Shown one piece after another: positions 95-29,324 of a stretch of DNA of 33,721 nt. Every line of letters starts with the position of its first letter. The first letter of the stretch is position 1. The notes beneath the pieces were generated by a model that saw nothing but the letters and a program-made list of their open reading frames with translations, did no database searches and was not told where the DNA came from. The position numbers were made by a program, and so were the translations under genes. Source of the stretch: Oscillospiraceae bacterium (lineage in GTDB: Bacteria > Bacillota > Clostridia > Oscillospirales > Oscillospiraceae); the NCBI GenBank assembly GCA_902767915.1, contig CACXJE010000014.1, positions 1 through 33,721 on the forward strand. The letters are read 5' to 3'.

Positions 95-204
95 AAATCG
101 GGGTTTGTGTGGTCGTAGGGGCCGATGCCCACATCGGCCCTCACGCTGATCCGGGGTAGGGCCGATGTGGGCATCGGCCCCTACGAATTGAAATCGACAA
201 ATCC
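95..204. repeat. Left arm of 110-bp inverted repeat with GTAG/CTAC palindrome
   Basis: The core 115-184 starts with GTAG, ends with CTAC and is a perfect 27-bp inverted repeat around a 16-bp centre; each 27-bp arm is itself a hairpin (GGCCGATG facing CATCGGCC). The flanks 95-107 and 185-204 also match the reverse complement of 2067-2176. I count about 6 differences in 110 bases. The word ATCGGGGTTTGGCG found in these flanks occurs again beside a palindrome with a different core at 14893, so flank and core appear to be separable modules. Confidence 0.9.
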
Positions 205-209
205 TGATT

Positions 210-340
210 CTGGTTATCGGGTTTACTCAGCAAATACACCGTAGGGACGAGCAGTGCTCGTCCCTACGGCAGCTTTGAAACGCTTCGGCCTCAGTTGGGT
301 GCCGCATTCAGTTGTCAGGCTGAGCAAAACCGATAACCAG
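210..340. repeat. Inverted repeat enclosing a GTAG palindrome
   Basis: Arms 210-230 and 320-340 pair at 19 of 21 positions. Between them lies a 27-bp palindrome (241-267) with GTAGGGAC / GTCCCTAC ends, related to the element at 27771-27814. It lies just downstream of the minus-strand membrane protein gene but lacks the T-run expected of an intrinsic terminator. Confidence 0.75.
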
Positions 341-348
341 AACGCTGT

Positions 349-1008
349 TTATTCTTTTCGTTTCAGACTCATAATGCCTTTTCTCAAAGCAGCGATGGAC
401 AGCGCAAGCACCGCCAGCATGATCGCCGCGCTTGTGACCGCGGTCAAGGACAGCATTCGGTTGCTCTCGTCCTTCATATTTACCATGATCAACGTGTTTT
501 GCAGCGTCAGAATCGACACCAGCGCGTCTATAAAATTGATCATTCGCAGGAGTCTGACGAGCCTGTTTTCCGATCTCGTTCTTCTTTTCAGGTTGACAGA
601 CGCCATAACGATTTTATAGGTCGTATAGGTCGCCATCGCAATGGCAGGAATCAAAGATAACGCGACCGGTTTCTGCAGCAGGACCAGCAGCGATACCGGC
701 ACCACCAGGCTCACGTTCAGGATGAACAGCATCACAGCCGAGATGACGTAGACCCTTCTCCTCGCCTCTGCCTCCCGCGCGCTGCCTGCGATCCTTTTCT
801 CGGACAGGACGATCAGTCCCCGCAGAGCGGAAAGAATCAGATAATAAACGCAGATCGTCCCGTGCCAGAGAGAGGCATGATACACCCCGAGAAACCCGTT
901 ATACAGCGCGAAAAGCACCGTCACGGCAAGCGAGTTGAAGGATGCTGTGAGCGTTTTGAAATCGAAGTCGTTCTTCCATCGTCCAAGGAACTGTTTTATG
1001 CTGTTCAT
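349..1008 (-). CDS. Polytopic membrane protein of TetR cassette, unknown function
   Basis: I do not recognise the family. The 219-residue product has roughly five to six hydrophobic segments (for example around LAVTVLFALYNGFLG, YVISAVMLFILNVSLVV, LSLIPAIAMATY and the C-terminal AAIMLAVLALSIAAL), so it should sit in the cytoplasmic membrane. I chose the ATG at 1008 because it overlaps the stop codon of the upstream TetR gene in an ATGA junction, which suggests translational coupling; a longer frame reaching 1095 would overlap the regulator by 90 bases. A transporter or an accessory membrane protein controlled by the TetR regulator is the simplest inference, but no catalytic motif or transporter signature is visible. 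Confidence 0.8.
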   Translation of the reverse strand: MNSIKQFLGRWKNDFDFKTLTASFNSLAVTVLFALYNGFLGVYHASLWHGTICVYYLILSALRGLIVLSEKRIAGSAREAEARRRVYVISAVMLFILNVSLVVPVSLLVLLQKPVALSLIPAIAMATYTTYKIVMASVNLKRRTRSENRLVRLLRMINFIDALVSILTLQNTLIMVNMKDESNRMLSLTAVTSAAIMLAVLALSIAALRKGIMSLKRKE

Positions 1009-1577
1009 TTTGCATCCCGTCCGTATGCCAAAGTGTGCCGCATAATCAAATCTACAATCAGATCGATCTCGTCCTGACAGTTGCTTTCGAGCCATTTCCC
1101 GATGATTGCAACCGTGCCCTGCGTATAGAACGCAAACACATATTTCTTCTCCCGCTCGCTGACGCCGAAATACGTCAGCGCCGGTGAGAAAATCGACTGA
1201 TAAAAGCTCTCGAAGGTTTTTTGCGAGTTGAACAGATGGTCCTTTTGGTGTATGACCCGATAGGCGCGCATGTTCTCTTTAATAAATTTAAGATACGGAC
1301 GCAGATATTTTTCGCTTGTCAGGATAACCCTGCTCGGATCCTCGGTCGGGACGGCAGCAAGCGACGCCTTGAATCTGTCGTTGATGAAGGCGACCGTTTC
1401 TTCCAGCAGATCGTTCATCGTCTCATAGTGAAGATAAAACGTCGAGCGATTGACGCCGGCCTTCTGGCAGACCTCCTTCACGGTGATCGCGTCAAAGTCT
1501 TTTTGTTCCAGCAAAAGCAGGAGAGCCTCGTCCATCAACGAGGCTGTGTATTGATATCTGCTTTCCTGCTTGCTCAT
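1005..1577 (-). CDS. TetR/AcrR family transcriptional regulator
   Basis: This 190-residue protein has a typical TetR N-terminal helix-turn-helix at about residues 30-52 (ITVKEVCQKAGVNRSTFYLHY, shortened here to its key part VNRSTFYLHY) followed by a variable all-helical ligand and dimer domain. TetR proteins usually repress their own operon until a small ligand binds. The ATG at 1577 is preferred over an upstream start because AAAGGAG precedes it at good spacing; this site lies between the stop of the preceding small gene (1588) and the regulator. The next gene overlaps by four bases. The ligand cannot be predicted; regulation of the two flanking membrane protein genes is inferred from the gene order. 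Confidence 0.92.
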   Translation of the reverse strand: MSKQESRYQYTASLMDEALLLLLEQKDFDAITVKEVCQKAGVNRSTFYLHYETMNDLLEETVAFINDRFKASLAAVPTEDPSRVILTSEKYLRPYLKFIKENMRAYRVIHQKDHLFNSQKTFESFYQSIFSPALTYFGVSEREKKYVFAFYTQGTVAIIGKWLESNCQDEIDLIVDLIMRHTLAYGRDAK

Positions 1578-1587
1578 AAGCGCTCCT

Positions 1588-1941
1588 TTATTCTGCTGCA
1601 ATCTGGTTTGCGAGGGCGAGAATATCAGCCGAATACTTTTTCTTTGCGTTTTCCAGAAGCTTTTTATAGATCGCGTAGTTGACCGAAACGCCGGCGATCC
1701 CGATCACACCGACAACAATTCCGAGCACCATAAAAAGCGTGCTTCCGTTCCCGATCACCTTCATCGAAAGGCACATGCCCACGCCCAGCAGAAGCGCCAT
1801 GACAACGCCGAAGGTGTAGGCAAAAATCGTTGCCGGACGTTTCGCGCGGTTGTCCAGCTTCTTCAGCGCGACGACCTTTCTCGTCTCTTTGGGGGCGTAT
1901 TCGCTGGCAATCTTTTCCGCATAAGCTTTATCTGTGTTCAT
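1588..1941 (-). CDS. Small two-TM membrane protein, first gene of TetR cassette
   Basis: The 117-residue product has a charged N-terminus (MNTDKAYAEKIASEYAPKE), a KKLD motif, then two hydrophobic segments at about residues 38-60 and 68-90 and a basic C-terminal tail. From memory it resembles a family of short clostridial membrane proteins sometimes labelled dihydropteridine reductase in databases; the name has no visible enzymatic basis here, so I call no function. The ATG at 1941 has AAAGGAGG eight bases upstream; a TTG at 1947 is too close to that site. It is 10 bp upstream of the TetR gene and probably co-transcribed with it. Confidence 0.85.
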   Translation of the reverse strand: MNTDKAYAEKIASEYAPKETRKVVALKKLDNRAKRPATIFAYTFGVVMALLLGVGMCLSMKVIGNGSTLFMVLGIVVGVIGIAGVSVNYAIYKKLLENAKKKYSADILALANQIAAE

Positions 1942-1970
1942 TTTCAAAACCTCCTTTGTTTTGTGCTTCC

Positions 1971-1976
1971 TTTATA
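1971..1976 (-). promoter_or_regulatory. Possible -10 box of the TetR cassette
   Basis: TATAAA reads leftwards at 1976-1971, which would start a transcript about 20-25 bases before the ATG at 1941. No convincing -35 hexamer lies 17 bases away, so the call is weak. A TetR operator would be expected nearby but no clear dyad stands out. Confidence 0.35.
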
Positions 1977-2066
1977 CCATGAGAAGCCGATGAAAGGAAC
2001 AACACAAAGGAGGGAAACTGTCGAGATCCTTGCGGCTGCGGCAGTCCAAATCGGCTCGACAAGCCG

Positions 2067-2176
2067 GGATTTGGCGATTTCAATTCGTAGGGGCCGATGC
2101 CCACATCGGCCCTACCCCGAATCAGCGTGAGGGCCGATGTGGGCATCGGCCCCTACGTCCCGCCAAACCCCGATTT
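2067..2176. repeat. Right arm of 110-bp inverted repeat
   Basis: This is the inverted partner of 95-204. The GTAG...CTAC core is 2087-2156 and differs from the left copy by one base in its 16-bp centre. Flanks 2067-2086 and 2164-2176 match the other arm as well. Together the arms enclose the three-gene TetR cassette. Confidence 0.9.
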
Positions 2177-2287
2177 GCAGGGTTGATTATATCAGATAAT
2201 ACCGTGTCTTTCAATGTAAAAGTCTGATGCGTGTAGACAATTCTTTGCTTGCCGGATGAATACTGAAAACTGAAGGTTGGACTACAG

Positions 2288-2325
2288 CGCAAAAATCCTG
2301 CCACTTTCATGACAGAATTTTTGCG
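2288..2325 (-). terminator. Terminator-like hairpin after tRNA remnant
   Basis: CGCAAAAAT (2288-2296) pairs with ATTTTTGCG (2317-2325). Read on the minus strand it follows directly after a 20-bp copy of the tRNA-Ser 3' end, the same order as the real tRNA and its terminator. The T-rich tract is inside the stem, so activity is uncertain. Confidence 0.45.
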
Positions 2326-2326
2326 T

Positions 2327-2421
2327 TGGCGGAGCGGGTGGGATTCTCCCGCGGGCTCACAAACAGTCCACCGGACTGTTTGTGACGGCTGTCGCCGTCG
2401 CCCTTTTCGAATCCCACCCGC
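2327..2421. repeat. tRNA-Ser 3'-end remnants in inverted orientation
   Basis: Positions 2327-2346 are identical over 20 bases to the 3' end of the tRNA-Ser gene (2476-2495), including the encoded CCA and half of the T arm. Positions 2409-2421 repeat 13 of these bases in the opposite orientation. Between them is a strong palindrome: CACAAACAGTCC (2358-2369) facing GGACTGTTTGTG (2373-2384), followed by a smaller ACGGC/GCCGT hairpin. It may be a broken second tRNA copy or an integration scar. Confidence 0.75.
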
Positions 2422-2435
2422 ATAAATACCATGCC

Positions 2436-2476
2436 AAAAAACCGAAAGAACGCGAAAATGCGTTCTTCCGGTTTTT
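2436..2476 (-). terminator. Rho-independent terminator of tRNA-Ser
   Basis: On the minus strand a 17-bp arm (2476-2460) pairs with 2453-2437 with a single mismatch around a six-base loop, and the 3' arm ends in a run of T. It begins at the CCA end of the tRNA, so it should end the tRNA transcript. Confidence 0.85.
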
Positions 2477-2566
2477 GGCGGAGCGGGTGGGATTCGAACC
2501 CACGGTACCATTGCTGGTACACCTGATTTCGAGTCAGGGCCGTTATAACCACTTCGATACCGCTCC
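2476..2566 (-). tRNA. tRNA-Ser (anticodon CGA)
   Basis: The gene is 91 nt with an encoded CCA (2478-2476). The acceptor stem pairs GGAGCGG (2566-2560) with CCGCTCC (2486-2480), and the discriminator base is G as expected for serine. The anticodon stem-loop has loop CTCGAAA with anticodon CGA at 2531-2529, which reads UCG codons. A long variable arm (GTACC...GGTAC) is present, the hallmark of class II tRNAs, and the T arm is GTGGG-TTCGAAT-CCCAC. No promoter is obvious upstream. A 20-bp copy of its 3' end lies about 150 bp away. Confidence 0.96.
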
Positions 2567-2940
2567 GTATTCGGGGACGAGTTTGTGGCGCAGCAGGTCC
2601 AATGTCGGGCGTCTTTGCGGGCAGACCTTGTGCCCTTCATGGGGATTACCCGGGCGGCGGGAACGGTGAAATCGGGCCGCAGGGGGCGGCAGCGGTGTAA
2701 CCAGCGTAACCAAAACAGGCCTTGGTTACAAAGTCGGTTACGCCGAAATTCCTTGCTATAGCACGATTTCTCGAACGGTTACAGGTTACAAGCTGCCCCA
2801 GGCAGATTTCGTTCCCGACCCCGGTGCCTCGTCGGAGCGGGGTACCCGTGGCGATCGATGATCGCCGCTACCGAGCGGGTCTGTTCCCTGTTCCCTGTTC
2901 CCTGTTGCCCAGGGTGCAGAGATGGCTCTTTTCCGGGGAT
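2567..2940. other. Intergenic region with GGTTAC cluster and CTGTTCC tandem repeat
   Basis: No gene is supported. Six copies of GTAACC/GGTTAC occur within 93 bases (2697, 2706, 2724, 2736, 2777, 2784; the first two inverted relative to the last four). A palindrome GTGGCGATC/GATCGCCGCTAC lies at 2848-2871 and ends in CTAC like the larger elements. A 7-bp unit (CTGTTCC) is repeated in tandem about three and a half times at 2881-2905. The plus-strand frame from 2722 to 3768 is antisense to the kinase gene and is rejected. Confidence 0.6.
2848..2871. repeat. Short palindrome ending in CTAC
   Basis: GTGGCGATC and GATCGCCGCTAC pair around GAT. On the minus strand it starts GTAGCGGCGATC, so it shares the GTAG end with the other elements in the window but has a core not seen elsewhere in it. 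Confidence 0.55.
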
Positions 2941-3642
2941 TTATTCCGGCAGATGACGGCCCATGGTCTCCCAGGCCATCCGGGCCGCGGAGGGGTCCAT
3001 ATTACAGTACAGGGTATAGACCGGCAGGGCGCGGAAGCAGGCGTCCATCAGACCCAGCTGCTTCACAAGCCGGGCTGCGTCCTTGGGACGGTAGGTCTGC
3101 CGCAGCATCATGGGCAGGAGCTCCTCCCGGGCAGCAGGCCGGATCTCATTCTTCTCGCCCCGGTTCAGGATCCCGAAGGCCGTCAGAGGGCGGATGGCGT
3201 TGGTTCCCATCCCCTCCTTGCCGCACCAGGGCGTTCCGCAGGCAACAAACCGGCCCTCCAGCTTCCGGATCACCGGCTTGTCTCCGTTCAGCACCCAGCT
3301 GTCCGGAAAGGCCTTTTGCCAGAGGTTGATATGGGTGGTTTTGCCGGTGCCGCTGGGGGCCGTAAAGACAAAGGCGCCCCCCCGGCGGGCGATCACAGCG
3401 CCGTGGAACACGAAGGCGTCATAGTCCGGCAGCAGCTCCGCGATCTTCCGGTAGGTACAGGTGAACTCCAGGTACTCCTTCCGGCCGGGGCAGAGCCGAT
3501 ACTCCGCCTCCAGCTCCTCATCGGTCACCGAGACCGTAAAATCCGGCCGGGTGCTCTCTGTGCGGAAGGCTTCGAAGCGCCGGCTGTGCATAAACCGATT
3601 TTCAATGCCGATGGTCAGGCCGGCCATTTCGATTGTGATCAT
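2941..3642 (-). CDS. HprK-like P-loop kinase
   Basis: The 233-residue product has a P-loop APSGTGKTTH at about residues 93-102, preceded by FHGAVIARRGGAFVF, a layout typical of proteins related to HPr kinase/phosphorylase and to the nucleotide-binding part of ATP-type PEP carboxykinase. Downstream NGDKPVI (near residue 116) would be the metal/phosphoacceptor region. The N-terminal HPr kinase domain is absent, so it is not bona fide hprK; relatives are often linked to peptide or cell-surface modification. I chose the ATG at 3642, which overlaps the previous stop in an ATGA junction; a start at 3663 is possible but less well placed. It is the last gene of the long minus-strand run. The substrate is unknown. 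Confidence 0.75.
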   Translation of the reverse strand: MITIEMAGLTIGIENRFMHSRRFEAFRTESTRPDFTVSVTDEELEAEYRLCPGRKEYLEFTCTYRKIAELLPDYDAFVFHGAVIARRGGAFVFTAPSGTGKTTHINLWQKAFPDSWVLNGDKPVIRKLEGRFVACGTPWCGKEGMGTNAIRPLTAFGILNRGEKNEIRPAAREELLPMMLRQTYRPKDAARLVKQLGLMDACFRALPVYTLYCNMDPSAARMAWETMGRHLPE

Positions 3643-4202
3643 AGGCCTTGCTTTTCTCCCCATTTTTCATACGGGACCTCCTTCAGAACCACGTTCCGAA
3701 GGAAGTCGAAGAGCGTTTCCTCTCCCCTGTCCTGCAGCAGGGTCAGCAGGAAGCGCATTTTTTTGTAGGTATCCGGATGGAGCTTGTCCCGGGCATGCTC
3801 CCGGTCCATATAGGCCAGAGGATCCCCGTCCCTGTAGTCCTTCCCCCGGTAGACCTTGGAGGCCGCGATCCGGTCCATGACCGACTCCACCAGGTAGCGG
3901 GTGGGCATGGGGACCGGCTGATACTCGTGTTCTCCGGGAGGCACGTCGGTCCAGTATTCATAATGGTGCTTGTTGCGGCCCTTATGGTGCATCCAGGCGG
4001 TGGAATAGCCCAGCGCCTCCCGGGCGCCGGCGTTGGGGCTGCGGGTGCCCTGGTAATACTTGGCGCCCTGCCAGAATTCCGTGGGGGAGTATTTGCTCAG
4101 ATCGTGGCAGAGTCCCTGCCGGATCAGGCCCACCCGGAGACAGTAGCCCATGACCATGTGGCGGTGCCTGGTGATGGTGCGAAAATGCTTGATCGGATGC
4201 AT
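3639..4202 (-). CDS. DUF5662 family protein
   Basis: This 187-residue protein has the HDLSKYSPTEF segment near residue 33 and a histidine-rich WMHHKGRNKHH stretch near residue 70, the hallmarks I associate with the DUF5662 family, which looks like a divergent HD-type metal site. No reaction has been assigned to it to my knowledge. The ATG at 4202 has a GGAG site seven bases upstream. It overlaps the HprK-like kinase gene by four bases, so the two are probably translated together, and it is separated from the glycosyltransferase gene by a GTAG-type palindrome. Confidence 0.75.
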   Translation of the reverse strand: MHPIKHFRTITRHRHMVMGYCLRVGLIRQGLCHDLSKYSPTEFWQGAKYYQGTRSPNAGAREALGYSTAWMHHKGRNKHHYEYWTDVPPGEHEYQPVPMPTRYLVESVMDRIAASKVYRGKDYRDGDPLAYMDREHARDKLHPDTYKKMRFLLTLLQDRGEETLFDFLRNVVLKEVPYEKWGEKQGL

Positions 4203-4258
4203 GGTCAGTCTCCTTTCCCCTTCTGCCTGCGGCTTCGGCGGACCGATGCGGGCTTTGT

Positions 4259-4303
4259 TGGGCCGATGTGGGCATACCCGCAGGGCACGCAGTCGGCCCC
4301 TAC
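4259..4303. repeat. GTAG/CTAC palindrome, 45-bp variant
   Basis: This 45-bp unit matches 10071-10115 at 44 of 45 positions. It is the GGCCGATG-type element with an alternative centre (CCCGCAGGGCACGCAGT). The CTAC end (4300-4303) lies in the glycosyltransferase gene, where on the minus strand GTAG provides the last base of the lysine codon and the TAG stop. Confidence 0.85.
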
Positions 4304-5013
4304 TTGTCGTAATTTTTGATCCGTTTCTTCATTACCCGCAGCTCCTTGAGCATGCGGAAGGTATCCCGGACCACCTTGACCTTGGATTCCCGGTGATTGA
4401 CGATCTTCACGGGCATCTCAATGAAGCTGTAGCCCAGCTTCTGGGCCCAGAGGATGGTCTCAAAGTCAAAGGCGAAGCCCTTGGTCTCCACCCTGGAGAA
4501 GATGTCCCGGATGGCCTTGCCCCGGTAGGCCTTGCAGCCGCACTGGGAGTCGGACAGCTTGAAGCCGCCGGCAATGTTCAGTACCTTGATATAGACGTGG
4601 GAGGCCAGCTTCCGGATGAAGGTATAGCCCTCGTAGCCCTCCGGATGCAGGGTCCGGGAGCCCAGCAGCACGTCCCGGTCCGGATTCTTCGTCATCAGCT
4701 CCTGCGCCTGGGCGATCACGTCGGTGCCGTAGGCCAGGTCTGCGTCGATGAACATGGCCAGCTCGCCTTCGGCGGCCAGCATGCCGGTTTTGACCGCGTT
4801 GCCCTTGCCCTGGTTGGGGGTGTAGCGGATGATCCGGGTCTTGGGCAGGGCCATGGCCTCCACCCGGGCGGCGCAGTCGTCGGTGCTGCCGTCGTCTACA
4901 AAGATCAGCTCATAGTCCTCGAAGTGGGCGACCAGGTAATCCGACAGGGTCCTGGCGCTGGCCTCGATGATGCTGCTCTCGTTGTACATGGGGACAATTA
5001 AGGATAATTTCAT
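4300..5013 (-). CDS. Family 2 glycosyltransferase, polyprenyl-phosphate type
   Basis: A 237-residue GT-A fold enzyme: N-terminal SLIVPMYNE, the nucleotide-binding DDGSTDD (residues 40-46), the metal-binding DAD (90-92), and LSDSQCGCKAYRG in the acceptor region. The arrangement is like dolichyl- or undecaprenyl-phosphate glycosyltransferases, which move a sugar from a nucleotide donor to a lipid phosphate at the inner face of the membrane. There is no C-terminal membrane domain, so it is the short, soluble form. The start at 5013 has only a weak AGAGG site. The stop codon lies in the terminal GTAG of a palindromic element, so the final residues may have been altered by the insertion. It lies in a probable lipid-modification operon. 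Confidence 0.9.
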   Translation of the reverse strand: MKLSLIVPMYNESSIIEASARTLSDYLVAHFEDYELIFVDDGSTDDCAARVEAMALPKTRIIRYTPNQGKGNAVKTGMLAAEGELAMFIDADLAYGTDVIAQAQELMTKNPDRDVLLGSRTLHPEGYEGYTFIRKLASHVYIKVLNIAGGFKLSDSQCGCKAYRGKAIRDIFSRVETKGFAFDFETILWAQKLGYSFIEMPVKIVNHRESKVKVVRDTFRMLKELRVMKKRIKNYDK

Positions 5014-5067
5014 GGTATCACGCCTCTTTGTTGTATTGTTGTAGTACGGCCTTCGCCGAACGGGCGG

Positions 5068-6239: not shown

Positions 6240-6268
6240 TCGTTGTTTCAAACCCTTCTGTTAATTTT

Positions 6269-10056: not shown

Positions 10057-10167
10057 GCAAGCCGGCAGAAAGGGCCGATGTGGGCATACCCGCAGGGCAC
10101 GCAGTCGGCCCCTACGACCTTGCTCTGCAAGCCGGCAGGAAGGGCCGATGTGGGCATCGGCCCCTAC
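10057..10167. repeat. Two tandem GTAG/CTAC palindromic units in the DUF362 leader
   Basis: The two units, 10057-10115 and 10127-10167, both begin GCAAGCCGGCAG and end CGGCCCCTAC. The first has the same alternative centre as the element at 4259-4303; the second has the plain GGCCGATG-TGGG-CATCGGCC hairpin. They lie between the promoter at 10178-10206 and the DUF362 start, so the transcript should carry them in its 5' leader. Confidence 0.85.
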
Positions 10168-14863: not shown

Positions 14864-14915
14864 GGATTCATTTGTGGGAAGGTTTTTCACAGATCGGGGT
14901 TTGGCGAGATGCTGC

Positions 14916-14990
14916 GTAGGGCGGCCAGACCCCTGGCCGCCGCGATGCCCGCCAGCGTGACGGCGGCGGCCTGGGGTCAGGCCGCCCTAC
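14916..14990. repeat. 75-bp GTAG/CTAC palindrome, GGCGGCC type
   Basis: It begins GTAGGGCGGCC and ends GGCCGCCCTAC; the outer arms pair and each half also forms its own hairpin. A relative lies at 23111-23185 with nearly identical arms but an inverted centre. The left flank (14893-14906) repeats the ATCGGGGTTTGGCG word found beside the elements at 95 and 2176. Confidence 0.88.
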
Positions 14991-15032
14991 GCAAGAGCCC
15001 CACAAATCCGAATATGGACCTGCTGATCGCGC

Positions 15033-22820: not shown

Positions 22821-22890
22821 GTAGCGGCGCACAGCGTGCGCCAGTTGTTCGTTGTTTCAGACTTGTGCGGCGCACACTGTGCGCCGCTGC
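22821..22890. repeat. 70-bp GTAG palindrome in the rpoB leader
   Basis: The left end GTAGCGGCGCAC pairs with the right end GTGCGCCGCTGC with one mismatch, and each half holds a GCGCAC/GTGCGC-type hairpin. The same ends occur in the element downstream of mtaB (29235-29324). It lies between the rpoB promoter and start codon, so it should fold in the mRNA leader. Confidence 0.85.
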
Positions 22891-23069: not shown

Positions 23070-23110
23070 CGGTTCTGACAAAAGATTTTTGTAACAGTTC
23101 ACCCCTTACC

Positions 23111-23185
23111 GCAGGGCGGCCTGACCCCAGGCCGCCGCGACAACCGCCAGCGTACAGACGGCGGCCAGAGGTCTGGCCGCCCTAC
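23111..23185. repeat. 75-bp GCAG/CTAC palindrome, GGCGGCC type
   Basis: The arms match the reverse complement of 14916-14990 with one difference each (GCAG instead of GTAG at the left end), but the 22-bp centre is inverted relative to the arms. It lies between the anti-sigma gene and the rpoBC promoter. Confidence 0.85.
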
Positions 23186-23341
23186 GCAAAACCGATAGAA
23201 TTTTTCTTGGGCAGACCTGTTACAGATTTTTACAGGTTTCTTTGTGAGCAGAAGTGGATCCGGTACTGCGCAGCGCCTGCGTCCTTGCGGCTCCGTACTG
23301 CGAAAACTCTTCGGCGCAGGCGGCCATTCCGTAGATTCCGA

Positions 23342-25285
23342 TCAGCTTTTTCCGCGCAGCCGTTTTACCCATTTCTCCGGAAGAACGTATTCTTTCTGCT
23401 CGATGGAGACGGAATAGGCCATGTCATTGTAGGAGGTCACGGTCATCGGGACTGCCAGATTCGGTTCTTCCGAGAAGAAGCCGTAAATCACGCCGTATTG
23501 ATAGCAGTTCTCTAAAAAGCCGTTCTCTTTTCGGACCAGATCATACAGCCCGGCCTCCTCCGGGCTCTTCTGAGACCGGACGTCAGCCAGGAACGCCGCG
23601 ATCTCCGCGGGGTCGGCGATCCCGTCGCCGCAGGTCAGATGCTCCGTGTTGTTTTTCAGCAGCCAGCTGTTTTTCACCAGCTCCAGCCTGACACAGTTGT
23701 CCACGGAGAAATCAAAGGGCGGCGAGGATACCTTGCGATAGATGCCGTACCATTCACTGGAGGAAACCCGGATCAGAATGTTGCGGGCCTCGTCCTCATC
23801 CAGCGCATAAAATCCATAGGCAGCCTTCCATGCAGGCCCTTCCCCTTCCCCGTTCACCTTCCCGACAAAGGTTTCGGTTCCGATGCAATCCAGAATACCT
23901 TCATTTGCCAGAAGCGCATATTCCTCGCCCCAGGGACTGAGATAATTTCCGTTCTCGGTTTCGGTGAAAACAGCGTTTGTTTCCTGCTCGCCGGAACCGT
24001 TCACATTCACCGCCGCGAAGGCGGCTTCGGGGTCTACGTTGCAGCTGAGGAACAGCCAGTCGGCACGGTAATCGGGGTATTCATCGGGTTCTCCGTTCAA
24101 GCCTCTGTCCTCGATGCGCTGGCAGCCCTCGGCCCGGACGAACAGGTATCGGTACGGCAAGCCGCCGCCCGTGGGTTCTTTTGAAATATCGAAGAAATCC
24201 TCAAACGGTTCGCCCTCCGGATCCCACATCGGCGTATTCTCGGTCCAAATGCAGATCGTTTCATCTCCGAAGCGGAGGATAAAAGCCTTTGGCGGGACAT
24301 GTCCAAAGGGTTCCGCTCTCTCTGCCCAGCCGATGATCCGGATCGAGCCGTCCGGGAGGGTCTCCATTTTGTTCTTCTTCCAAAGCGTCAGATCCAGGTG
24401 TTTCCAGTGATACGTCTTTTCGGACATCACCCGGCGCGTCTCCAGGCTGGTTATCTCCAGCGTCGTCGGAAGCACCAAAACCCAAGCGCGCCCGGGGTTA
24501 GCCCAATAAGTTGTAAGCTTCACTTGCGGCTCGTCCTGATTCCAGAAATAGAGATATGCCGTCTGTGCGTCCCATGTCACGTCGATCAGTCTCAGATCTT
24601 CACCGAAATTATTGGGATACCATTTCGCCCAGACCAGATAACGCTGGTCCGGATCGCGGTATTTTTGATCCATGCCCCATTTCTCGCAATAGGCAGCATA
24701 CTCCGCATAGGACATGAGCGTTTGCTGCTCGAAGCCCTCCCTTTCTTCGTCCCGGCTCCAGTTGATCTCCGGATTCTTTTCGGTCAGGCTCTGCAAATCA
24801 TACTCGCCCTCGTAGCGGGCGTTCTCGTCGTCCAGGACCCAGACGGTCTCGCCGCCCAGGTCGGCGGCGTGGCAGTGTTGGGGGTTCAACGGCTCGGCGG
24901 GCGTCGTCTCCTCCGGGAGCTGGGTCCCTTCCATGGGGGCAGCGGACCTTCGGGTGAGCTGCCGATGGAGCAGCCAGCCGCCGGCGCCCAGGATGGTCAT
25001 CACCAGGACGGCGGCCACGGCCCCCTGCCAGCGGGCCCGCTTGGTGGAGGTGGAGCGGATGGCCACCGGCGCCTCCGGCTCCCCGCTGTCCTTGTTGTCA
25101 TTGCGAGACCAGTGCACACACTGGTCGTGGCAATCTTTGGAATTGGTGTTGGAGGAGCGGCTTGCCACACCGGTGACGTCGGTCACCGGTTCGCAATGAC
25201 AGGAAAGAGCCGCGTCCAAATGGGCGTCATAGGCCTCTGTGAGAAGGGCCGACAGGCGCTCGTCACGCATTTGCTTCCGTTTCAT
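23342..25285 (-). CDS. Membrane-anchored probable anti-sigma factor with in-frame palindromic insertion
   Basis: The 647-residue protein has a short N-terminus (MKRKQMRDERLSALLTEAYD), a single membrane segment at about 86-107 (GAVAAVLVMTILGAGGWLL) and a long, unrecognised outer domain rich in Trp, Tyr and acidic residues. It directly follows an ECF sigma gene (its ATG touches the sigma stop, with GGAGGTGG inside the sigma gene), so a regulatory partner role is likely. Residues about 29-63, cysteine- and serine-rich (SCHCEP...CHDQCVHWS), are encoded by a 104-bp palindromic repeat with GTCATTGCGA ends. This part would lie between the presumed sigma-binding helix and the membrane. No zinc anti-sigma signature is seen; the cysteines come from the repeat. 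Confidence 0.78.
   Translation of the reverse strand: MKRKQMRDERLSALLTEAYDAHLDAALSCHCEPVTDVTGVASRSSNTNSKDCHDQCVHWSRNDNKDSGEPEAPVAIRSTSTKRARWQGAVAAVLVMTILGAGGWLLHRQLTRRSAAPMEGTQLPEETTPAEPLNPQHCHAADLGGETVWVLDDENARYEGEYDLQSLTEKNPEINWSRDEEREGFEQQTLMSYAEYAAYCEKWGMDQKYRDPDQRYLVWAKWYPNNFGEDLRLIDVTWDAQTAYLYFWNQDEPQVKLTTYWANPGRAWVLVLPTTLEITSLETRRVMSEKTYHWKHLDLTLWKKNKMETLPDGSIRIIGWAERAEPFGHVPPKAFILRFGDETICIWTENTPMWDPEGEPFEDFFDISKEPTGGGLPYRYLFVRAEGCQRIEDRGLNGEPDEYPDYRADWLFLSCNVDPEAAFAAVNVNGSGEQETNAVFTETENGNYLSPWGEEYALLANEGILDCIGTETFVGKVNGEGEGPAWKAAYGFYALDEDEARNILIRVSSSEWYGIYRKVSSPPFDFSVDNCVRLELVKNSWLLKNNTEHLTCGDGIADPAEIAAFLADVRSQKSPEEAGLYDLVRKENGFLENCYQYGVIYGFFSEEPNLAVPMTVTSYNDMAYSVSIEQKEYVLPEKWVKRLRGKS
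25097..25200. repeat. 104-bp palindromic element inside the anti-sigma gene
   Basis: Ends GTCATTGCGA (25097-25106) and TCGCAATGAC (25191-25200) are perfect inverted repeats. Inside are GACCAGTG/CACTGGTC, GTGGCAA/TTGCCAC and ACCGGTGA/TCACCGGT stems, a cloverleaf-like fold. The TCATTGCGAG...GTGGCAATC pattern resembles dispersed repeats seen in many bacteria. A degenerate copy is at 25893-25993. The reading frame stays open through it. Confidence 0.9.
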
Positions 25286-25798
25286 CTATTCCACCTCCCG
25301 CAGCTGCTTCCGCAGCTTTTCCTTGCCCCGGCTGATCAGCTTCTCCGCCTTGGCGGGGCTGCAGCCCAAGGTTTCCGCCACCTGCCTTGCCGTAAGGCCG
25401 CAGGTCAGAGCCAGCAGCACCGCCGTGCGCTGCTCCTCCGGCAGCCGGTCCAGGGCCTCCCGGACCGCCAGACGCAGGTCCGGGTCCGGCCCGGGACTCC
25501 CCTGCTCCGGCAGGGCCTCCAGGGGCAGGATTTGCGCCCGCTTCTGCCTGCGCAGCAGGTCCAGGGCGGTGCGCTCCGTCACCACCGCCACAAACCGGCG
25601 GGTTCGGGGGCTCACCGGCTCGTCCAGGCAGTCCCAGTGCTCCAGCACCTTCACCATGGACTCGGACACCGCGTCCTCCGCCAGGGCCGGGTCCTGCAGG
25701 ATCCGGTTCGCCAGGGCCAGCATCAGCCCGCGATATTCAGAATAGGTGCGCTCAAACTCCGGGTTCAGCCGATCCCGGGACAGCACGGTGGGGCACAT
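25286..25798 (-). CDS. ECF-type RNA polymerase sigma factor
   Basis: The 170-residue protein has region 2 (LANRILQDPALAEDAVSESMVKVLEH, key part DPALAEDAVSESMVKV, about residues 35-52) and region 4 (RTAVLLALTCGLTARQVAETLGCS, with a helix-turn-helix TARQVAETLGCSPAKAEKLI at about 136-155). No region 3. ATG 25798 has AAAGGAG eight bases upstream. The anti-sigma gene starts immediately after its stop. No ECF-type promoter with the normal spacing was found upstream; the region there holds a terminator split by a repeat. Confidence 0.93.
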   Translation of the reverse strand: MCPTVLSRDRLNPEFERTYSEYRGLMLALANRILQDPALAEDAVSESMVKVLEHWDCLDEPVSPRTRRFVAVVTERTALDLLRRQKRAQILPLEALPEQGSPGPDPDLRLAVREALDRLPEEQRTAVLLALTCGLTARQVAETLGCSPAKAEKLISRGKEKLRKQLREVE

Positions 25799-25868
25799 GG
25801 CAGGGTCTCCTTTTTTGGTTTCTGTTCTCTATAACGCAGGGGATGCGGGGTTTCGGACAGGGGGATAG

Positions 25869-26018
25869 AAAAAACGTGCCGCAAAATGCGTGTCCCTGCG
25901 AGACCGGTGCGGACACTGGTCGTGGCAATCTGTGGTTCCGGGTTCAGAGTACAGATTCCCACACCGGTACCGTCGGGCACCGGTTCGGAATGACTGGCTT
26001 ACGCATTTTGCGGCACGT
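25869..26018 (-). terminator. Terminator of the PfkB/GIY-YIG unit with a repeat in its loop
   Basis: On the minus strand the arm 26018-26001 is perfectly complementary over 18 bases to 25891-25874, and the second arm is followed by a run of six T (25874-25869). This is the form of an intrinsic terminator just after the GIY-YIG stop (26021), but its loop is about 109 bases long because a palindromic element (25893-25993) sits in it. Confidence 0.75.
25893..25993. repeat. Degenerate copy of the GTCATTGCGA-type element
   Basis: It shares the GCGAGACC(A/G)GTG, CACTGGTCGTGGCAATC and CACCGGT...CACCGGTTCG(G/C)AATGAC blocks with 25097-25200; the outer ends are partly decayed. It occupies the loop of the 18-bp terminator stem. 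Confidence 0.8.
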
Positions 26019-26020
26019 CT

Positions 26021-26392
26021 TCAAATGGCGCGGACTTCCGTGCGCCGCTGCAGGGCGGCGTCGTTTACGAGGGCTTCCTTCTCCCTGTGGGACAGGCGCT
26101 TGAGGTGCCATTCCCGGGAGAGGGCGGCCTCCCTGGTGGGGCAGGCCTCGGTATAGACCAGCTCCACCGGCAGGCGGGAGCGGGTATATTTCGCTCCCTT
26201 GCCGGAGTTGTGGACCGCTGAGCGCCGGACCGGGTCGGTGGAATAGCCGCAGTAATAGCTCCCGTCCCGGCAGCGGACCAGGTAGACGTAGTGGGATGCG
26301 GCATTCACGGAGGGAAGGTCGGCCGGCAAATTTCCGGCGCTGCAATCGGGATCGGCCGGCAGATTGCCGGCGCTACGTGTGGATTCGGTCAC
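26021..26392 (-). CDS. GIY-YIG nuclease superfamily protein with repeat-derived N-terminus
   Basis: Residues from about 34 onward (YVYLVRCRDGSYYCGYSTDPVRR, key part YVYLVRCRDGSYYCG) are a GIY-YIG domain of the small YhbQ/UPF0213 type, with the YVY and YCG pair, an arginine at STDPVRR and a glutamate near VYTEAC. Small members are about 85-95 residues; here 123 because the first 30 residues, including two copies of SAGNLPAD, are encoded by a tandem palindrome (26319-26376). The start is uncertain: GTG 26392 lies eight bases after the PfkB stop without a clear ribosome site, and an internal GTG near residue 29 could be used. Probably co-transcribed with the kinase. Confidence 0.82.
   Translation of the reverse strand: MTESTRSAGNLPADPDCSAGNLPADLPSVNAASHYVYLVRCRDGSYYCGYSTDPVRRSAVHNSGKGAKYTRSRLPVELVYTEACPTREAALSREWHLKRLSHREKEALVNDAALQRRTEVRAI
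26319..26376. repeat. Tandem palindrome ending in GTAG, GCGCCGGCA type
   Basis: On the minus strand two direct units, GTAGCGCCGGCAATCTGCCGG and GCAGCGCCGGAAATTTGCCGG (each 21 bases; differing at three positions) follow each other, and each is a hairpin. The element lies within the N-terminal frame of the GIY-YIG gene. Confidence 0.75.
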
Positions 26393-26400
26393 GGGCTGTA

Positions 26401-27339
26401 TCAGTCTTCGTCTTCCACTTCCACGTCCAGGCCAATTTCGCTGGGCAGGAAGCGGGGGCAGACGTTCTCGGAGGTCATGATCACCGAGGCCGCCAGGAAG
26501 GAGCCGATCTCACAGGACTCCGCCAGGGTCTTGCCGTAGGTCAGGCCCACGGAAACGCCGGCACAGAAGGCGTCCCCGGCGCCGGTGGTGTCCTTGACGA
26601 TGACGTTTCTCGCCGGGCAGTAGCCCTTATAGCCGAACATATCCGCGTAGACCGCGCCCTTGTCGCCCAGGGTGATGATCATGCTGGGGATCCGGGCCCG
26701 GCGGACCTTCTCCGCCAGGATGGCCTCCATCTCGGGGATGGTCTTTTCGGTGTAGTCGTCGGAGAACAGGATGCCGGCCTCCTGCCGGTTGCAGATGAAG
26801 CAGGCGCAGTCCTGCAGGAAGTCCCGGCGCTGGACCGCGATGGACATATTGGCCACCACGGCGTAGACGGGCTTGTTATATTTCTTGGCCAGCTTGAAGG
26901 TCTTTTTGACGATCTCCTTGTCCAGGCAGATCTCGATCACGATGGAATCCGCGTTTGAGAAGATCTCGTCGCCCTTTTCCTCCAGCAGGTCCAGCAGCGG
27001 GGTCATGTCCGGCCGCTGCGAGACGGAGCCCACCACGTCGCCGGTATGGTCAAAGACCGCCAGCCAGGTACCCATGCCGTTCTTCACGGTGCGGATATAG
27101 TCCACGTTGACCTTGTGGCTCTTGAGCTTGCGGACCACCTCCGCGCCGGCGCCGTTGTCGTCCACCAGACTCACATAGGTGGGGCGAAGCTCCACGTTGG
27201 CAATGTCCTCCGCCACGTTCCGGCTGACACCGCCGTGGACCTGCTCGATCCAGCCCACGTTCCGCCCCTGGGGGATGTACTTATCCGTGGGGAAGCCCTT
27301 AATGTCCACAAAAACTGCGCCGATGACTACGATACCCAT
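26401..27339 (-). CDS. PfkB family carbohydrate/nucleoside kinase
   Basis: A 312-residue ribokinase-fold enzyme: N-terminal GIVVIGAVFVDIKG, substrate-binding GGVSRNVAED near residue 37, and the anion-hole/catalytic motif DTTGAGDAFCAG at about 250-261 with the catalytic aspartate. The family phosphorylates sugars or nucleosides such as ribose, fructose-1-phosphate or pseudouridine; the lack of neighbouring sugar genes leaves the substrate open, though the SRNVAEDIA segment is like that of pseudouridine/nucleoside kinases. ATG 27339 has AGGAGGT upstream. A good promoter lies at 27453-27481 and the GIY-YIG gene follows after eight bases. Confidence 0.9.
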   Translation of the reverse strand: MGIVVIGAVFVDIKGFPTDKYIPQGRNVGWIEQVHGGVSRNVAEDIANVELRPTYVSLVDDNGAGAEVVRKLKSHKVNVDYIRTVKNGMGTWLAVFDHTGDVVGSVSQRPDMTPLLDLLEEKGDEIFSNADSIVIEICLDKEIVKKTFKLAKKYNKPVYAVVANMSIAVQRRDFLQDCACFICNRQEAGILFSDDYTEKTIPEMEAILAEKVRRARIPSMIITLGDKGAVYADMFGYKGYCPARNVIVKDTTGAGDAFCAGVSVGLTYGKTLAESCEIGSFLAASVIMTSENVCPRFLPSEIGLDVEVEDED

Positions 27340-27452
27340 GCTGTAACCTCCTGCTTTTTGTTCCCGTTATGGTTCGTATGTTCCGTCCGTGTTGACAATC
27401 GAAAATTGTCGGTGTTTTTCACATTTCGTTGGAAAACAAAGGATTTTATATG

Positions 27453-27481
27453 ATTGTATCATCCTTTTTTTGAAATTTCAA
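27453..27481 (-). promoter_or_regulatory. Promoter of the PfkB kinase gene
   Basis: Leftward -35 TTGAAA (27481-27476), 17-bp spacer, -10 TACAAT (27458-27453). The leader of about 105 bases contains a GACAAT/ATTGTC dyad (27394-27410) that could be an operator, though nothing else supports that. Confidence 0.75.
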
Positions 27482-27510
27482 TTGTAAGTATTTCATTTTC
27501 CGGTTTTTTG

Positions 27511-27519
27511 TGCTATGAT
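27511..27519 (+). promoter_or_regulatory. Extended -10 promoter of the mtaB operon
   Basis: TGC followed by TATGAT (27514-27519) forms an extended -10 element; the matching -35 (TTTCAT, 17 bases upstream) is weak. It is divergent from the kinase promoter and about 65 bases before the next gene. Confidence 0.55.
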
Positions 27520-27589
27520 ACATTCTGAAGTATTTACCGAGGCAAACCGCCTTCTCAATTTTCAATTTGCAACTCCGGGAGGACTTGAG

Positions 27590-27766
27590 ATGGATCCCAC
27601 TCTATGTGAATCCTGCTGGCATTACGATTACGACGAGGAGACCGACGAGTATTACTGCCGGATGGATCTGGACGAGGACGAGTACTACCGGTATCTCGCC
27701 GCGCCGAAGGCCAGGTGCCCCTTCTATCAGAAGGGTGACGACTATTACCTGCCCAGGCATCAATAA
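27590..27766 (+). CDS. Small four-cysteine acidic protein, DUF6472-like
   Basis: The 58-residue protein starts MDPTLCESCWHYDYDEETDEYYC and has cysteines in the order CxxC, C, C (CESC, YYCRMDLDEDEYY, RCPFY), with many Asp, Glu and Tyr residues. From memory this matches the short DUF6472 family, which may bind a metal through the four cysteines; no function is known to me. I chose ATG 27590 because GGGAGGA precedes it by six bases; the frame upstream to 27515 overlaps the promoter. It is followed by a GTAG-type palindrome and mtaB. Confidence 0.8.
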   Translation: MDPTLCESCWHYDYDEETDEYYCRMDLDEDEYYRYLAAPKARCPFYQKGDDYYLPRHQ

Positions 27767-27770
27767 TATC

Positions 27771-27814
27771 GTAGGGACAGGCCCTGTCCGCGGACGAGCG
27801 CGGCTCGTCCCTAC
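27771..27814. repeat. 44-bp GTAG/CTAC palindrome, GGACGAG type
   Basis: It starts GTAGGGACAGG and ends CTCGTCCCTAC and holds two hairpins (GGACAGG/CCTGTCC and GGACGAG/CTCGTCC). The right half matches the small element at 241-267. It lies between the cysteine protein and mtaB. Confidence 0.85.
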
Positions 27815-27834
27815 ACAATTCCATGAGAGGTACT

Positions 27835-29238
27835 ATGAACTTTACCATTGTAACCTTAGGCTGCAAGGTCAATCAATACGAGTCCCAGGCCATGGAGCAA
27901 TGGCTGACCCAACGGGGCCACACCGAGGTGGAGCCCGACGAGGCCTTTGACCTGGCGATCGTCAACACCTGCACAGTCACCGCCGTGGCGGACAAGAAAA
28001 ACCGCAACGTGATCCGCCGGATCCGAAAGCAGAGTCCCGGGGCGGTGGTGGCGGTCTGCGGCTGCTACAGCCAGGTGAAGCCGGAGGATATCCGGGACCT
28101 GGGTGTGGACGTGATCTCCGGCTCCGCCGGGCGGGAGGCCTTTTTGGAGCTGGCCCTGCAGACCGTGGCCGACCGGCAGAGGCGGGAGGCCCTGGACGAG
28201 GCTCTGAAGCGGCGGCAGTTTGAAATTCTGCCCGCCGGCGGTCTCTCCACCCGGACCCGGTCCATGCTGAAGGTTCAGGATGGCTGCTCCAACTTCTGCT
28301 CCTACTGCATCATCCCCTACGCCCGGGGGCCGGTGCGGAGTCTGCCCCTGGCAGAGGCCGTGGCGCAGGCAAAGCAGCTGGCTGCGGAGGGCTACCGGGA
28401 GATCGTGATCACCGGCATCGAAATCGCCTCCTGGGGCTGGGATTTCCACGATGGCAGCTCCCTTGTGCAGCTTCTGGACGCCATCTGCGCCGCGGTTCCC
28501 GCGGTGCGGATCCGGCTGGGCTCCCTGGAGCCCCGGATCATTGACCAGGCCTTTTGCCGGGTCATGGCCGCCCACAAAAATCTCTGCCCCCATTTCCACC
28601 TGTCCATGCAGTCCGGCTCCGACACGGTGCTGTCCCGGATGCGGCGGAAATACGACACGGCCCGCTACTACGAAAGCGTGGCCCTGCTGAAGGCCGCCTT
28701 CCCGGGCTGCGCGGTGACCACGGACATGATCGTGGGCTTCCCCGGGGAAACCGAGGCGGAGTTTGCGGAAAGCCTGACCTTCATCCGCAAATGCGGCTTT
28801 GCCGCCATGCACGTCTTCCCCTACTCCCGCCGACCCGGCACCCCTGCCGACAAGATGCCCGGCCAGCTGGGCAACGCTGTCAAGGAGGCCCGCTCCGCTG
28901 CGGCCATCGCCGTGGCCGGGGAGATGAACCGAGCCTTCCGGGAGCGCATGATCGGGACGGTGCAGGCGGTGCTGTTCGAGGAGGAGGCAGCAGGCAGCAG
29001 GCAGCAGATAAGCCCGACAGCGGCGCAGATCAGCATACCACAGGACCCGGCGGACGACGATCGCCTGCTGACGCATGCGATGAATGGCGCACAGTGTGCG
29101 CCGCTACAATGCTGGACCGGCCATGCGCCGAATTCGATCCGGGTCTACGCCCCCGGGGAGGCTCTGCACAACCAGGTCCTGCCCGTGAAGATCACCGGCC
29201 TGTACGAGGACGGCTTGCTCGGAGAAACTGTTCTGTAG
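27835..29238 (+). CDS. mtaB: tRNA threonylcarbamoyladenosine 37 methylthiotransferase MtaB
   Basis: A 467-residue radical-SAM methylthiotransferase that adds a methylthio group to t6A37 of tRNAs. The N-terminal domain has the three cluster cysteines (TLGCKVNQYE near 12, VNTCTVT near 47, CGCYSQ near 80); the radical SAM motif is CSNFCSYC (about 152-159); a TRAM domain is at the C-terminus. ATG 27835 is chosen over 27823 because GAGAGG stands in front. Residues about 383-426 (rich in Ala, Gln and Pro) interrupt the TRAM domain between its first strands and are partly encoded by a palindromic repeat (29055-29107). The TAG stop is bases 2-4 of the next palindrome. MtaB proteins are usually about 430-440 residues. 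Confidence 0.94.
   Translation: MNFTIVTLGCKVNQYESQAMEQWLTQRGHTEVEPDEAFDLAIVNTCTVTAVADKKNRNVIRRIRKQSPGAVVAVCGCYSQVKPEDIRDLGVDVISGSAGREAFLELALQTVADRQRREALDEALKRRQFEILPAGGLSTRTRSMLKVQDGCSNFCSYCIIPYARGPVRSLPLAEAVAQAKQLAAEGYREIVITGIEIASWGWDFHDGSSLVQLLDAICAAVPAVRIRLGSLEPRIIDQAFCRVMAAHKNLCPHFHLSMQSGSDTVLSRMRRKYDTARYYESVALLKAAFPGCAVTTDMIVGFPGETEAEFAESLTFIRKCGFAAMHVFPYSRRPGTPADKMPGQLGNAVKEARSAAAIAVAGEMNRAFRERMIGTVQAVLFEEEAAGSRQQISPTAAQISIPQDPADDDRLLTHAMNGAQCAPLQCWTGHAPNSIRVYAPGEALHNQVLPVKITGLYEDGLLGETVL
29055..29107. repeat. Partial palindrome inside mtaB
   Basis: This stretch matches 29272-29324 with few differences: a GATCGCCTGC/GC(A)GGCGAT hairpin followed by GCGCACA/TGTGCGC and ending in CCGCTAC. 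Only the right half of the full 90-bp element is recognisable. Just upstream, 28985-29004, a GGCAGCA unit is repeated about three times. Confidence 0.85.
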
Positions 29239-29324
29239 TGGCGTACAGTGTGCGCCACGGAAGCTGCGCGACGATGATCGCCTGCTGACGCAGGCGATGA
29301 ATGGCGCACAATGTGCGCCGCTAC
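29235..29324. repeat. 90-bp GTAG/CTAC palindrome after mtaB
   Basis: It begins GTAGTGGCGTACA and ends TGTGCGCCGCTAC (two mismatches between arms), with a central ATCGCCTGC/GCAGGCGAT hairpin. The arms match the rpoB-leader element at 22821-22890; its right part matches the insertion within mtaB. The left GTAG contains the mtaB stop codon. Confidence 0.88.

What the first reader, a model, noticed from the sequence alone, without database searches (positions are those of the whole stretch)
115..29324. Many unrelated palindromic cores share GTAG / CTAC ends
Seen: at least a dozen palindromes (115-184, 241-267, 2087-2156, 2848-2871, 4259-4303, 10071-10115, 10127-10167, 14916-14990, 22821-22890, 23111-23185, 26319-26376, 27771-27814, 29235-29324) have different cores (GGCCGATG, GGACGAG, GGCGGCC, GCGCACA, GCGCCGGCA, GGCGATC) but nearly all start GTAG and end CTAC. 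The flank word ATCGGGGTTTGGCG is shared between elements with different cores. Inference: one mobilising or replicating mechanism recognises the ends and flanks and tolerates any hairpin core, in the manner of REP/BIME elements but with swappable cores.
Basis: partly seen in the sequence, partly recalled or inferred. Interest (0 to 1): 0.78.

Follow-up and report, generated by a model that had tools for sequence, protein, structure and literature searches.

The report
Repeat hairpins with matched transposase enzymes
These repeated DNA hairpins are REP elements of a bacterium that is probably one of the Clostridia; they come in several families that tend to go each with its own transposase-like enzyme, and some sit inside a second repeat whose ends stay the same while the contents change.

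Summary
The palindromes are real. They are GTAG-tagged REP hairpins, often in inverted pairs (BIMEs), which produces the GTAG…CTAC look: 6 of the 13 listed have both ends, all have at least one. GTAG precedes a hairpin at 3.2% of its sites, against 0-1.2% for 16 control tetramers. The cores are not swappable inside one mechanism. The genome has four REP-associated tyrosine transposase (RAYT) genes, each next to REPs of its own core. Over 59 RAYT loci, core follows RAYT relatedness (Mantel r 0.34, 0 of 5000 permutations), with exceptions. This is known REP/RAYT biology. The shared flank word is a separate layer: 17-bp inverted arms CAAATYSGGATTTGKCG that enclose six REP cores, AT-rich DNA, heptamer arrays or other hairpins. 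Identity falls to chance outside the arms; no target duplication and no mobiliser were found. REPs inside longer palindromes have precedents (PMC3733652); one frame with many cargos I did not find described. In passing: genes of a four-helix-bundle family (PF05635) are often flanked by inverted 7-bp repeat arrays.

The parts
94..211 (.). Frame A element: 17-bp inverted arms (94-110, 195-211) around an F1 BIME
115..184 (.). F1 BIME: two inverted REPs, core GGGCCGATG
208..342 (.). Frame B element: 24-nt inverted arms TTCTGGTTATCGG... around one F2 hairpin
241..267 (.). F2 hairpin GTAGGGACGAG...CTCGTCCCTAC; same core type beside RAYTs L094 and L186 of the same genus
1..110 (.). Part of an AT-rich non-REP frame cargo cut by the window edge, with a frame arm at about 90-110
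2060..2177 (.). Frame A element around an F1 BIME
   Evidence: L152 1496-1613
2087..2156 (.). F1 BIME; same core beside RAYTs L178, L180, L181
2850..2871 (-). Single REP GTAGCGGCGATCATCGATCGCC; a further copy in L020 and a near copy in L017; no RAYT seen with this core
4260..4303 (-). F1-type REP with extra bases inside the hairpin
10072..10115 (-). Identical copy of the unit at 4260-4303
10142..10167 (-). Single F1 REP
14890..15016 (.). Frame A element around an F4 BIME downstream of rpoC; no framed element seen at this place in 17 relatives
14916..14990 (.). F4 BIME, core GGCGGCCwGACC; same core 49 bp upstream of RAYT L111 (one side only)
22821..22890 (.). F7 BIME (core CGGCGCACA) upstream of rpoB; 11 relatives lack this pair, but one (L236) has REPs of another core there and one (L239) a single REP with a similar GGCGCACA core
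23111..23185 (.). F4 BIME, left tag degenerate (GCAG)
26319..26376 (.). REP pair with core CGCCGGCAA, left half degenerate; same core type beside this genome's own RAYT on contig C10
27771..27814 (.). F2-type BIME made of GGACAGG and GGACGAG hairpins
29086..29107 (-). Single F7 REP
29235..29324 (.). F7 BIME, core CGGCGCACA; same core type beside RAYTs L187, L195, L196

Best explanation
The palindromes are GTAG-tagged REP elements: an unpaired 5' GTAG followed by a GC-rich hairpin, often in inverted pairs (BIME). The genus carries several parallel families, defined by their hairpin cores and mostly tied each to its own RAYT, a single-tyrosine HUH transposase. Each RAYT most likely recognises the folded single strand of its cognate REP through GTAG and core and copies or moves it (inferred from published work on other RAYTs; not shown here). 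Over this lies a second layer: some BIMEs sit between 17-bp inverted arms ('frame A') that also enclose other cores, AT-rich DNA or unrelated hairpins. The framed unit behaves like one dispersed block, most likely a MITE-like element moved by an unidentified enzyme, with REPs as cargo (inferred).
For: REP anatomy and excess at GTAG. Four RAYT genes in this genome, each next to REPs of its own core: three on both sides, the C82 gene upstream and inside its open frame. Genus: 34 of 36 RAYT loci examined (of 54 rows listed) have a GTAG hairpin within 500 bp, 28 on both sides; 5.2 per kb against 0.41 per kb beyond 900 bp. Exact inverted repeats of 14 bp or more within 450 bp flank 15 of 93 RAYTs: 13 hold GTAG or CTAC themselves, one lies inside a GTAG REP (L121), one is a REP with the tag GCAG (L083). 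Core follows RAYT relatedness. Protein identity: NCBIfam REP_Tyr_transpos is the best family for all four; 4er8 TnpArep is the one strong PDB sequence hit, E 7e-7, the other 12 being 0.06 or worse; the best fold match is also 4er8 (model pLDDT 79.8). HUH residues N95-H96-x-H98 invariant in 20 aligned RAYTs. Frame: 32 copies against 1 control; 59 sites in 8 of 23 genus genomes, none in the control; 49 called frames with mixed cargo; outside identity 0.23-0.26, arms 0.67-0.92, core 0.91-0.92 (9 F1 and 7 F7 copies chosen by hand).
Against: NCBIfam scores (55-63 bits) stay under the curated cut-off of 80. 53 of 115 RAYT loci have no GTAG hairpin within 500 bp, 51 of them outside the genus. Exceptions to core specificity: L068 and L108 are distant RAYTs with an F1 REP nearby; the GGCCGATG and GGACrAGC groups are not single clades; 35 of 59 rows fall in no named core group. 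F1, F2, F4 and F7 have no matching RAYT in this 78%-complete assembly; F4 has a RAYT neighbour at one locus and on one side only. Frame: no target duplication in 27 frames and no autonomous partner found, so its mobility is inferred from the copies alone.
Confidence: 0.85

Rival explanations
1. One RAYT or other nuclease recognises GTAG and the flanks and mobilises any hairpin core.
For: GTAG is common to all families; flanks are shared by different cores.
Against: Four RAYTs with four cores in one genome; core tracks RAYT relatedness; frame arms are not found near RAYT genes.
Confidence: 0.06
2. The frame is not mobile: it is a pre-existing palindrome whose loop is a preferred insertion site for REPs of any family (the 'target palindrome' view of PMC3733652).
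For: A cargo-free 46-bp frame exists (L010 17977-18022); published precedents of REP dimers inside longer palindromes.
Against: At most 3 of 49 called frames are nearly cargo-free; spacers between arm and REP differ between cargos and recur within one cargo family (read by eye); non-REP cargos occur.
Confidence: 0.35
3. The hairpins are locally evolved transcription terminators or RNA stabilisers, not mobile repeats.
For: Some lie just downstream of genes (for example after rpoC).
Against: Near-identical copies at many places, RAYT coupling, lineage-specific presence at rpoB and rpoC. A secondary RNA role is not excluded.
Confidence: 0.04
4. The mixture of cores in one frame comes from recombination between similar hairpins (gene conversion or template switching) rather than from independent cargo capture.
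For: The spacer GGCTGCGCCC occurs with both F1 and F5 cargo.
Against: Other spacers go with one cargo; not tested formally.
Confidence: 0.15

Closest known systems
GTAG-tagged REPs / BIMEs (PMC3733652; PMC2817692)
   Same: Unpaired GTAG, GC-rich palindrome, inverted pairs, several families per genome, family-specific REPtrons.
   Different: The main texts of those two papers hold neither Firmicutes nor Clostridi; here the host is taken to be a Clostridia bacterium from the titles of genomes that share the F1 core.
RAYT / TnpAREP, perhaps subclass 2.4 of PMC6006769 (NH[IFV]H, WQ, YIxNNP; scattered over phyla; REP insertions inside the gene)
   Same: Most of these motifs in the alignment; REPs beside the gene; the C82 gene has a REP inside its open frame.
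   Different: Scores below the NCBIfam cut-off; the subclass is a comparison of motifs only, no tree with reference members was made.
REP dimers inside longer palindromes (A. variabilis GTAG-15, H. neapolitanus CGTC-1, T. roseum GTAG-23; PMC3733652, passage read)
   Same: A REP enclosed by an outer palindrome.
   Different: In that passage each outer palindrome is given with one REP family; here frame A encloses six REP cores and non-REP cargos, and frame B arms stand before at least three cores (both arms verified only for the window copy).
Bacterial MITEs
   Same: Short non-coding element, 17-bp inverted ends, sharp boundaries.
   Different: No target duplication and no parent element found.

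Membership tests
GTAG REP / BIME | Unpaired 5' GTAG at the foot of a hairpin, more often than chance | tested here: met
   61 of 1934 GTAG sites against 0-1.2% for 16 control tetramers
GTAG REP / BIME | Palindromic unit of about 20-40 bp, also in inverted pairs | tested here: met
   typical units of 22-38 nt; inverted pairs at 115, 2087, 14916, 29235 and others
GTAG REP / BIME | High copy number per genome | tested here: met
   61 strict hits in 434 kb of a 2.23-Mb assembly, all families together, a few of them chance hairpins; single families are smaller
GTAG REP / BIME | RAYT gene flanked by cognate REPs | tested here: met
   3 of 4 RAYT genes of this genome on both sides, the fourth (C82) upstream and inside; in the genus 34 of 36 loci on at least one side, 28 on both; outside the genus 28 of 79
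GTAG REP / BIME | Single-strand cleavage of the REP by its RAYT | not testable with these tools
   needs purified protein
RAYT / TnpAREP | HUH motif and conserved C-terminal tyrosine | tested here: met
   N95 H96 H98 and Y150 invariant, Y144 in 90% or more of 20 sequences
RAYT / TnpAREP | Y1 transposase fold, closest to TnpAREP | tested here: met
   4er8 first, E 4.3e-7, TM 0.57, rmsd 6.4; next IS200/IS605 transposases
RAYT / TnpAREP | NCBIfam REP_Tyr_transpos curated cut-off | tested here: inconclusive
   best family for all 4, but 55-63 bits against a cut-off of 80
MITE (for frame A) | Terminal inverted repeats with sharp outer boundary | tested here: met
   17-bp arm; in 40 partner arms (some near-duplicates) conservation falls to background beyond about the 17th base
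MITE (for frame A) | Target-site duplication | tested here: not met
   no clear excess of direct repeats at the ends of 27 frames (largest z 2.0 among 49 offset and length settings); frame A is therefore called MITE-like only
MITE (for frame A) | Autonomous element with the same ends | tested here: inconclusive
   none recognised among convergent arms 500-3000 bp apart (8 listings); open frames there were not profile-searched

The most novel reading that the evidence does not exclude
Frame A (and frame B) is a cargo-agnostic mobile container: an enzyme that recognises only the 17-bp inverted arms spreads whatever lies between them, so that one carrier picks up REPs of several independent RAYT systems, heptamer arrays and other hairpins, and each species amplifies its own combination (F1 in this genome, F7 in G305).
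Probability: 0.3. Interest if true: 0.68.

Novelty: new variant of a known kind. Interest (0 to 1): 0.46.

Why it matters
The genus offers several parallel enzyme-hairpin pairs in related genomes (up to 7 RAYT matches per genome in the genus, some of them pieces of one gene), a natural set for working out which residues of a RAYT read which REP core. The frame layer suggests that REP families with different enzymes can share one carrier, which would give REPs a second way to spread that does not need their own RAYT.

Tried and rejected
Rfam on the window found only the tRNA at the gathering threshold. The F1 BIME has no match in phage records. The Y1_Tnp hit on contig C9 (L001) is an ordinary IS200-type transposase (136 bits) without a role here that I could see. 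The Pfam search of 120 family genomes mixed IS200 transposases with RAYTs and scored RAYTs low; the protein query replaced it. I tested whether RAYTs are flanked by frame arms: no. I tested for target duplications of the frame: none clear. I looked for a parent element between distant arms: none recognised; a PF05635 gene near one arm led to the side observation below, but 27 of 30 PF05635 loci have no frame-like arm nearby and the 3 matches are weak, so by this evidence it is not the frame's mobiliser. Orthologous sites upstream of rpoB (11 relatives) and downstream of rpoC (17 relatives; one, L440, has a weak single arm-like match, and GTAG/CTAC words in three were not checked for hairpins) show lineage-specific differences, but the spacers are too diverged to define the exact empty site. 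One search failed by a script error and was rerun. The PF05635 coupling used wrongly extracted proteins and is replaced. In one search the copies were chosen by hand for equal length (9 F1 copies of this genome, leaving out L150 and L159; 7 F7 copies of G305, leaving out L359, L364, L365 and one of two in L207), and one F7 copy (L362) was parsed wrongly, which lowers the F7 left-spacer figure. In one search the arm rule is loose and a few short frames (for example L160 751-800, L227 1354-1405) are doubtful; it also misses frames accepted (for example L166, L170, L198, L206). RAYT loci: 115 were examined, that is those for which searches returned loci plus 60 more of the longer matches fetched by place; other matches in those lists were left out. 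Paper searches gave nothing on the point sought in the rows listed.
Full report
What was checked. The window is contig C14 of an unnamed 2.23-Mb assembly (99 contigs, 78% complete).

The observation. All 13 listed places form hairpins. 7 of 13 start GTAG, 12 end CTAC, 6 have both. The basic unit is GTAG plus a hairpin such as GTAG-GGGCCGATG-CCCA-CATCGGCCC; two units in inverted order give GTAG...CTAC. In 433,721 bases of this genome, 61 of 1934 GTAG sites carry such a hairpin, against 0-1.2% for 16 other tetramers. With a looser rule over 95 tetramers GTAG is second, 6.9% against a median of 2.9%.

REP families have their own enzymes. A Y1-transposase search found a weak hit on contig C50 that proved to be a RAYT with REPs on both sides within 150 bp. 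Its protein finds four RAYT genes in this genome (five matches, one gene in two pieces). Their neighbouring cores differ: GGAACGATC and GGAAGGATC at C50; CGCGGGCAA and CGCCGGCAA at C10; CGGCGGCCAT and CGGCGAGCAT at C7; GGGACGGG at C82, where the REPs lie upstream and inside the open frame only. RAYT matches occur in 94 of 300 genomes of the family and 17 of 23 of the genus. Of 36 RAYT loci from the genus, 34 have a GTAG hairpin within 500 bp and 28 on both sides; of 79 from other genera 28 and 11. Density near the genes is 5.2 per kb in the genus, against 0.41 per kb further away. Without asking for GTAG, exact inverted repeats of 14 bp or more around the gene occur in 15 of 93 loci: 13 hold GTAG or CTAC, one lies inside a GTAG REP, one is a REP tagged GCAG.

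Core and enzyme go together. Over 59 loci with a core within 300 bp, RAYT identity and core similarity (best match between the two sets of cores) correlate: Mantel r 0.34, 0 of 5000 permutations. RAYT pairs of at least 70% identity share the core (at least 0.9) in 14 of 16 cases, 60-70% in 15 of 24, under 50% in 21 of 1582. On a maximum-likelihood tree of the 59, three core groups (8, 3 and 3 rows) are single clades in 96-100% of bootstrap trees; all labels need 11 changes against 23.1 in shuffles, as low in 0 of 200. Against: the GGCCGATG group (6 rows) needs 4 changes, in part because two distant RAYTs (L068, L108) have such a REP nearby, the GGACrAGC group (3 rows) needs 3, and 35 rows carry cores that I did not name. 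Five core types of the window have a RAYT neighbour somewhere: F1 at L178, L180, L181; F2 at L094, L186; F7 at L187, L195, L196; CGCCGGCAA at this genome's own C10; F4 at one locus only, L111, on one side. For the core at 2850-2871 I saw none. F1, F2, F4 and F7 have no matching RAYT in the present assembly, which is incomplete.

The enzyme. NCBIfam names REP_Tyr_transpos first for all four, at 55-63 bits, under its cut-off of 80. The best PDB sequence match is 4er8, TnpArep (E 7.4e-7). An AlphaFold2 model from 20 sequences (pLDDT 79.8) matches 4er8 first (TM 0.57), then IS200/IS605 transposases. HUH residues are invariant in 20 sequences. Motifs agree broadly with subclass 2.4 as printed in PMC6006769 (passages read), including REPs inside the gene, which the C82 gene shows.

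The second layer. The flank word belongs to a 17-bp arm, CAAATYSGGATTTGKCG, present as inverted pairs. CGGGRTTTGKCG: 32 copies in this genome, 1 for the reversed pattern. AATCGGGATTTGKCG: 59 sites in 8 of 23 genus genomes, none in the control. The exact 17-mer is in 4 of 400 family genomes: 2 of the 9 genus genomes drawn and 2 others; exact matching is strict, so this only suggests that the frame is near-confined to the genus. One outlier, L241 in another genus, again encloses a different hairpin repeat. Forty partner arms show conservation that falls away beyond about the 17th base. Of 49 frames called in six species, 36 hold GTAG REPs of five cores (F1 16, F7 10, GGCGTCC 6, F4 2, F5 2), 4 hold AT-rich DNA and 9 something else: heptamer arrays (4), a GCCTTCCCC hairpin (2), or almost nothing (3, two of them doubtful); add the CGCGGGC core, making six. 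Within one species copies of a framed unit share core (0.91-0.92), arms (0.67-0.92) and part of the spacers (0.46-0.77), while 30 bases outside are at chance (0.23-0.26). So the unit seems to disperse with the arms as its limits. No clear target duplication was seen in 27 frames and no parent element. In the 434-kb sample 10 of 98 REP clusters have an arm within 60 bp, 6 of them on both sides (19 of 2100 random places have one), so framing is a minority state. A second frame (B, TTCTGGTTATCGGNTTT) at 208-342 encloses F2 here, and its arm stands before other cores elsewhere.

Orthologous places. Upstream of rpoB, 11 relatives lack the F7 pair at 22821-22890; at the same place L236 has several REPs of another core, and L239 a single REP with a similar GGCGCACA core, so a shared origin with that one is not excluded. 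Downstream of rpoC none of 17 relatives shows the framed F4 element. Most of these differences look like lineage-specific insertions.

Comparison with print. PMC3733652 (first part and passages read) describes GTAG REPs in Proteobacteria, Cyanobacteria, Chloroflexi and the PVC group, family-specific REPtrons, and REPs inside longer palindromes. PMC2817692 and PMC6006769 (passages read) state that RAYTs and REPs coevolve and that each tnpAREP has its own REP family. PMC8266576 (passages read) treats recognition of the folded single strand and a role of GTAG. So the REP layer is a new set of members of a known kind. I found no report of GTAG REPs with RAYTs in Clostridia in searches (for 26, 20 of 231 papers were listed), and the library lacks many journals. 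A frame shared by many REP families and by non-REP cargo I did not find described (search 68 had no paper; the passage is the nearest).

Verdict.

Noticed in passing
Loci L374-L403 (genus) and L404-L431 (other genera); window arrays at 2879-2910, 27552-27572, 28980-29010: Genes of the PF05635 four-helix-bundle family ('23S_rRNA_IVP'; 16 of 23 genus genomes) are often flanked by arrays of 7-bp tandem repeats: both sides in 21 of 30 genus loci examined, inverted in 19; both sides in 9 of 28 loci of other genera, inverted in 8 (periods 5, 6, 8: 1, 2, 0 both), against 5 of 600 random windows of this genome and 0 of 89 RAYT loci. The heptamer differs between loci and follows protein relatedness (Mantel r 0.53, n 23, 0 of 5000; pairs of 70% identity or more share it in 6 of 7). 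Against: 4 of 11 rpoB-upstream loci also have period-7 arrays, and arrays in AT-rich relatives may be partly chance. It looks like a second protein-plus-cognate-repeat system, parallel to RAYT/REP; paper searches showed nothing on it.
   Followed up: partly
L084 123-809 (contig C82 of this genome): The RAYT open frame holds a REP of its own core (574, minus strand) and stays open across it.
   Followed up: no
L055, L180, L191: Very similar stretches of about 20 bases (ACTCGAAGAGTCACGAAGTA) lie inside REP hairpins of two different cores; the window units at 4260-4303 and 10072-10115 hold other extra bases at the same point of the F1 core.
   Followed up: no
window 25089-25208 and 25891-25935: A repeat beginning TGTCATTGCGAGACC with inverted ends, two copies at 87% identity; a repeat that looks similar in kind is the cargo of the frame in L241.
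   Followed up: no
window 30701-30742: Perfect 21-nt inverted repeat without spacer, AAAAGCTCCCTCTGTGAGAAA.
   Followed up: no
window 2406-2421 beside the tRNA-Ser at 2476-2566: Inverted copy of 16 bases of the 3' part of the tRNA-Ser (GCGGGTGGGATTCGAA), 61 bases away.
   Followed up: no
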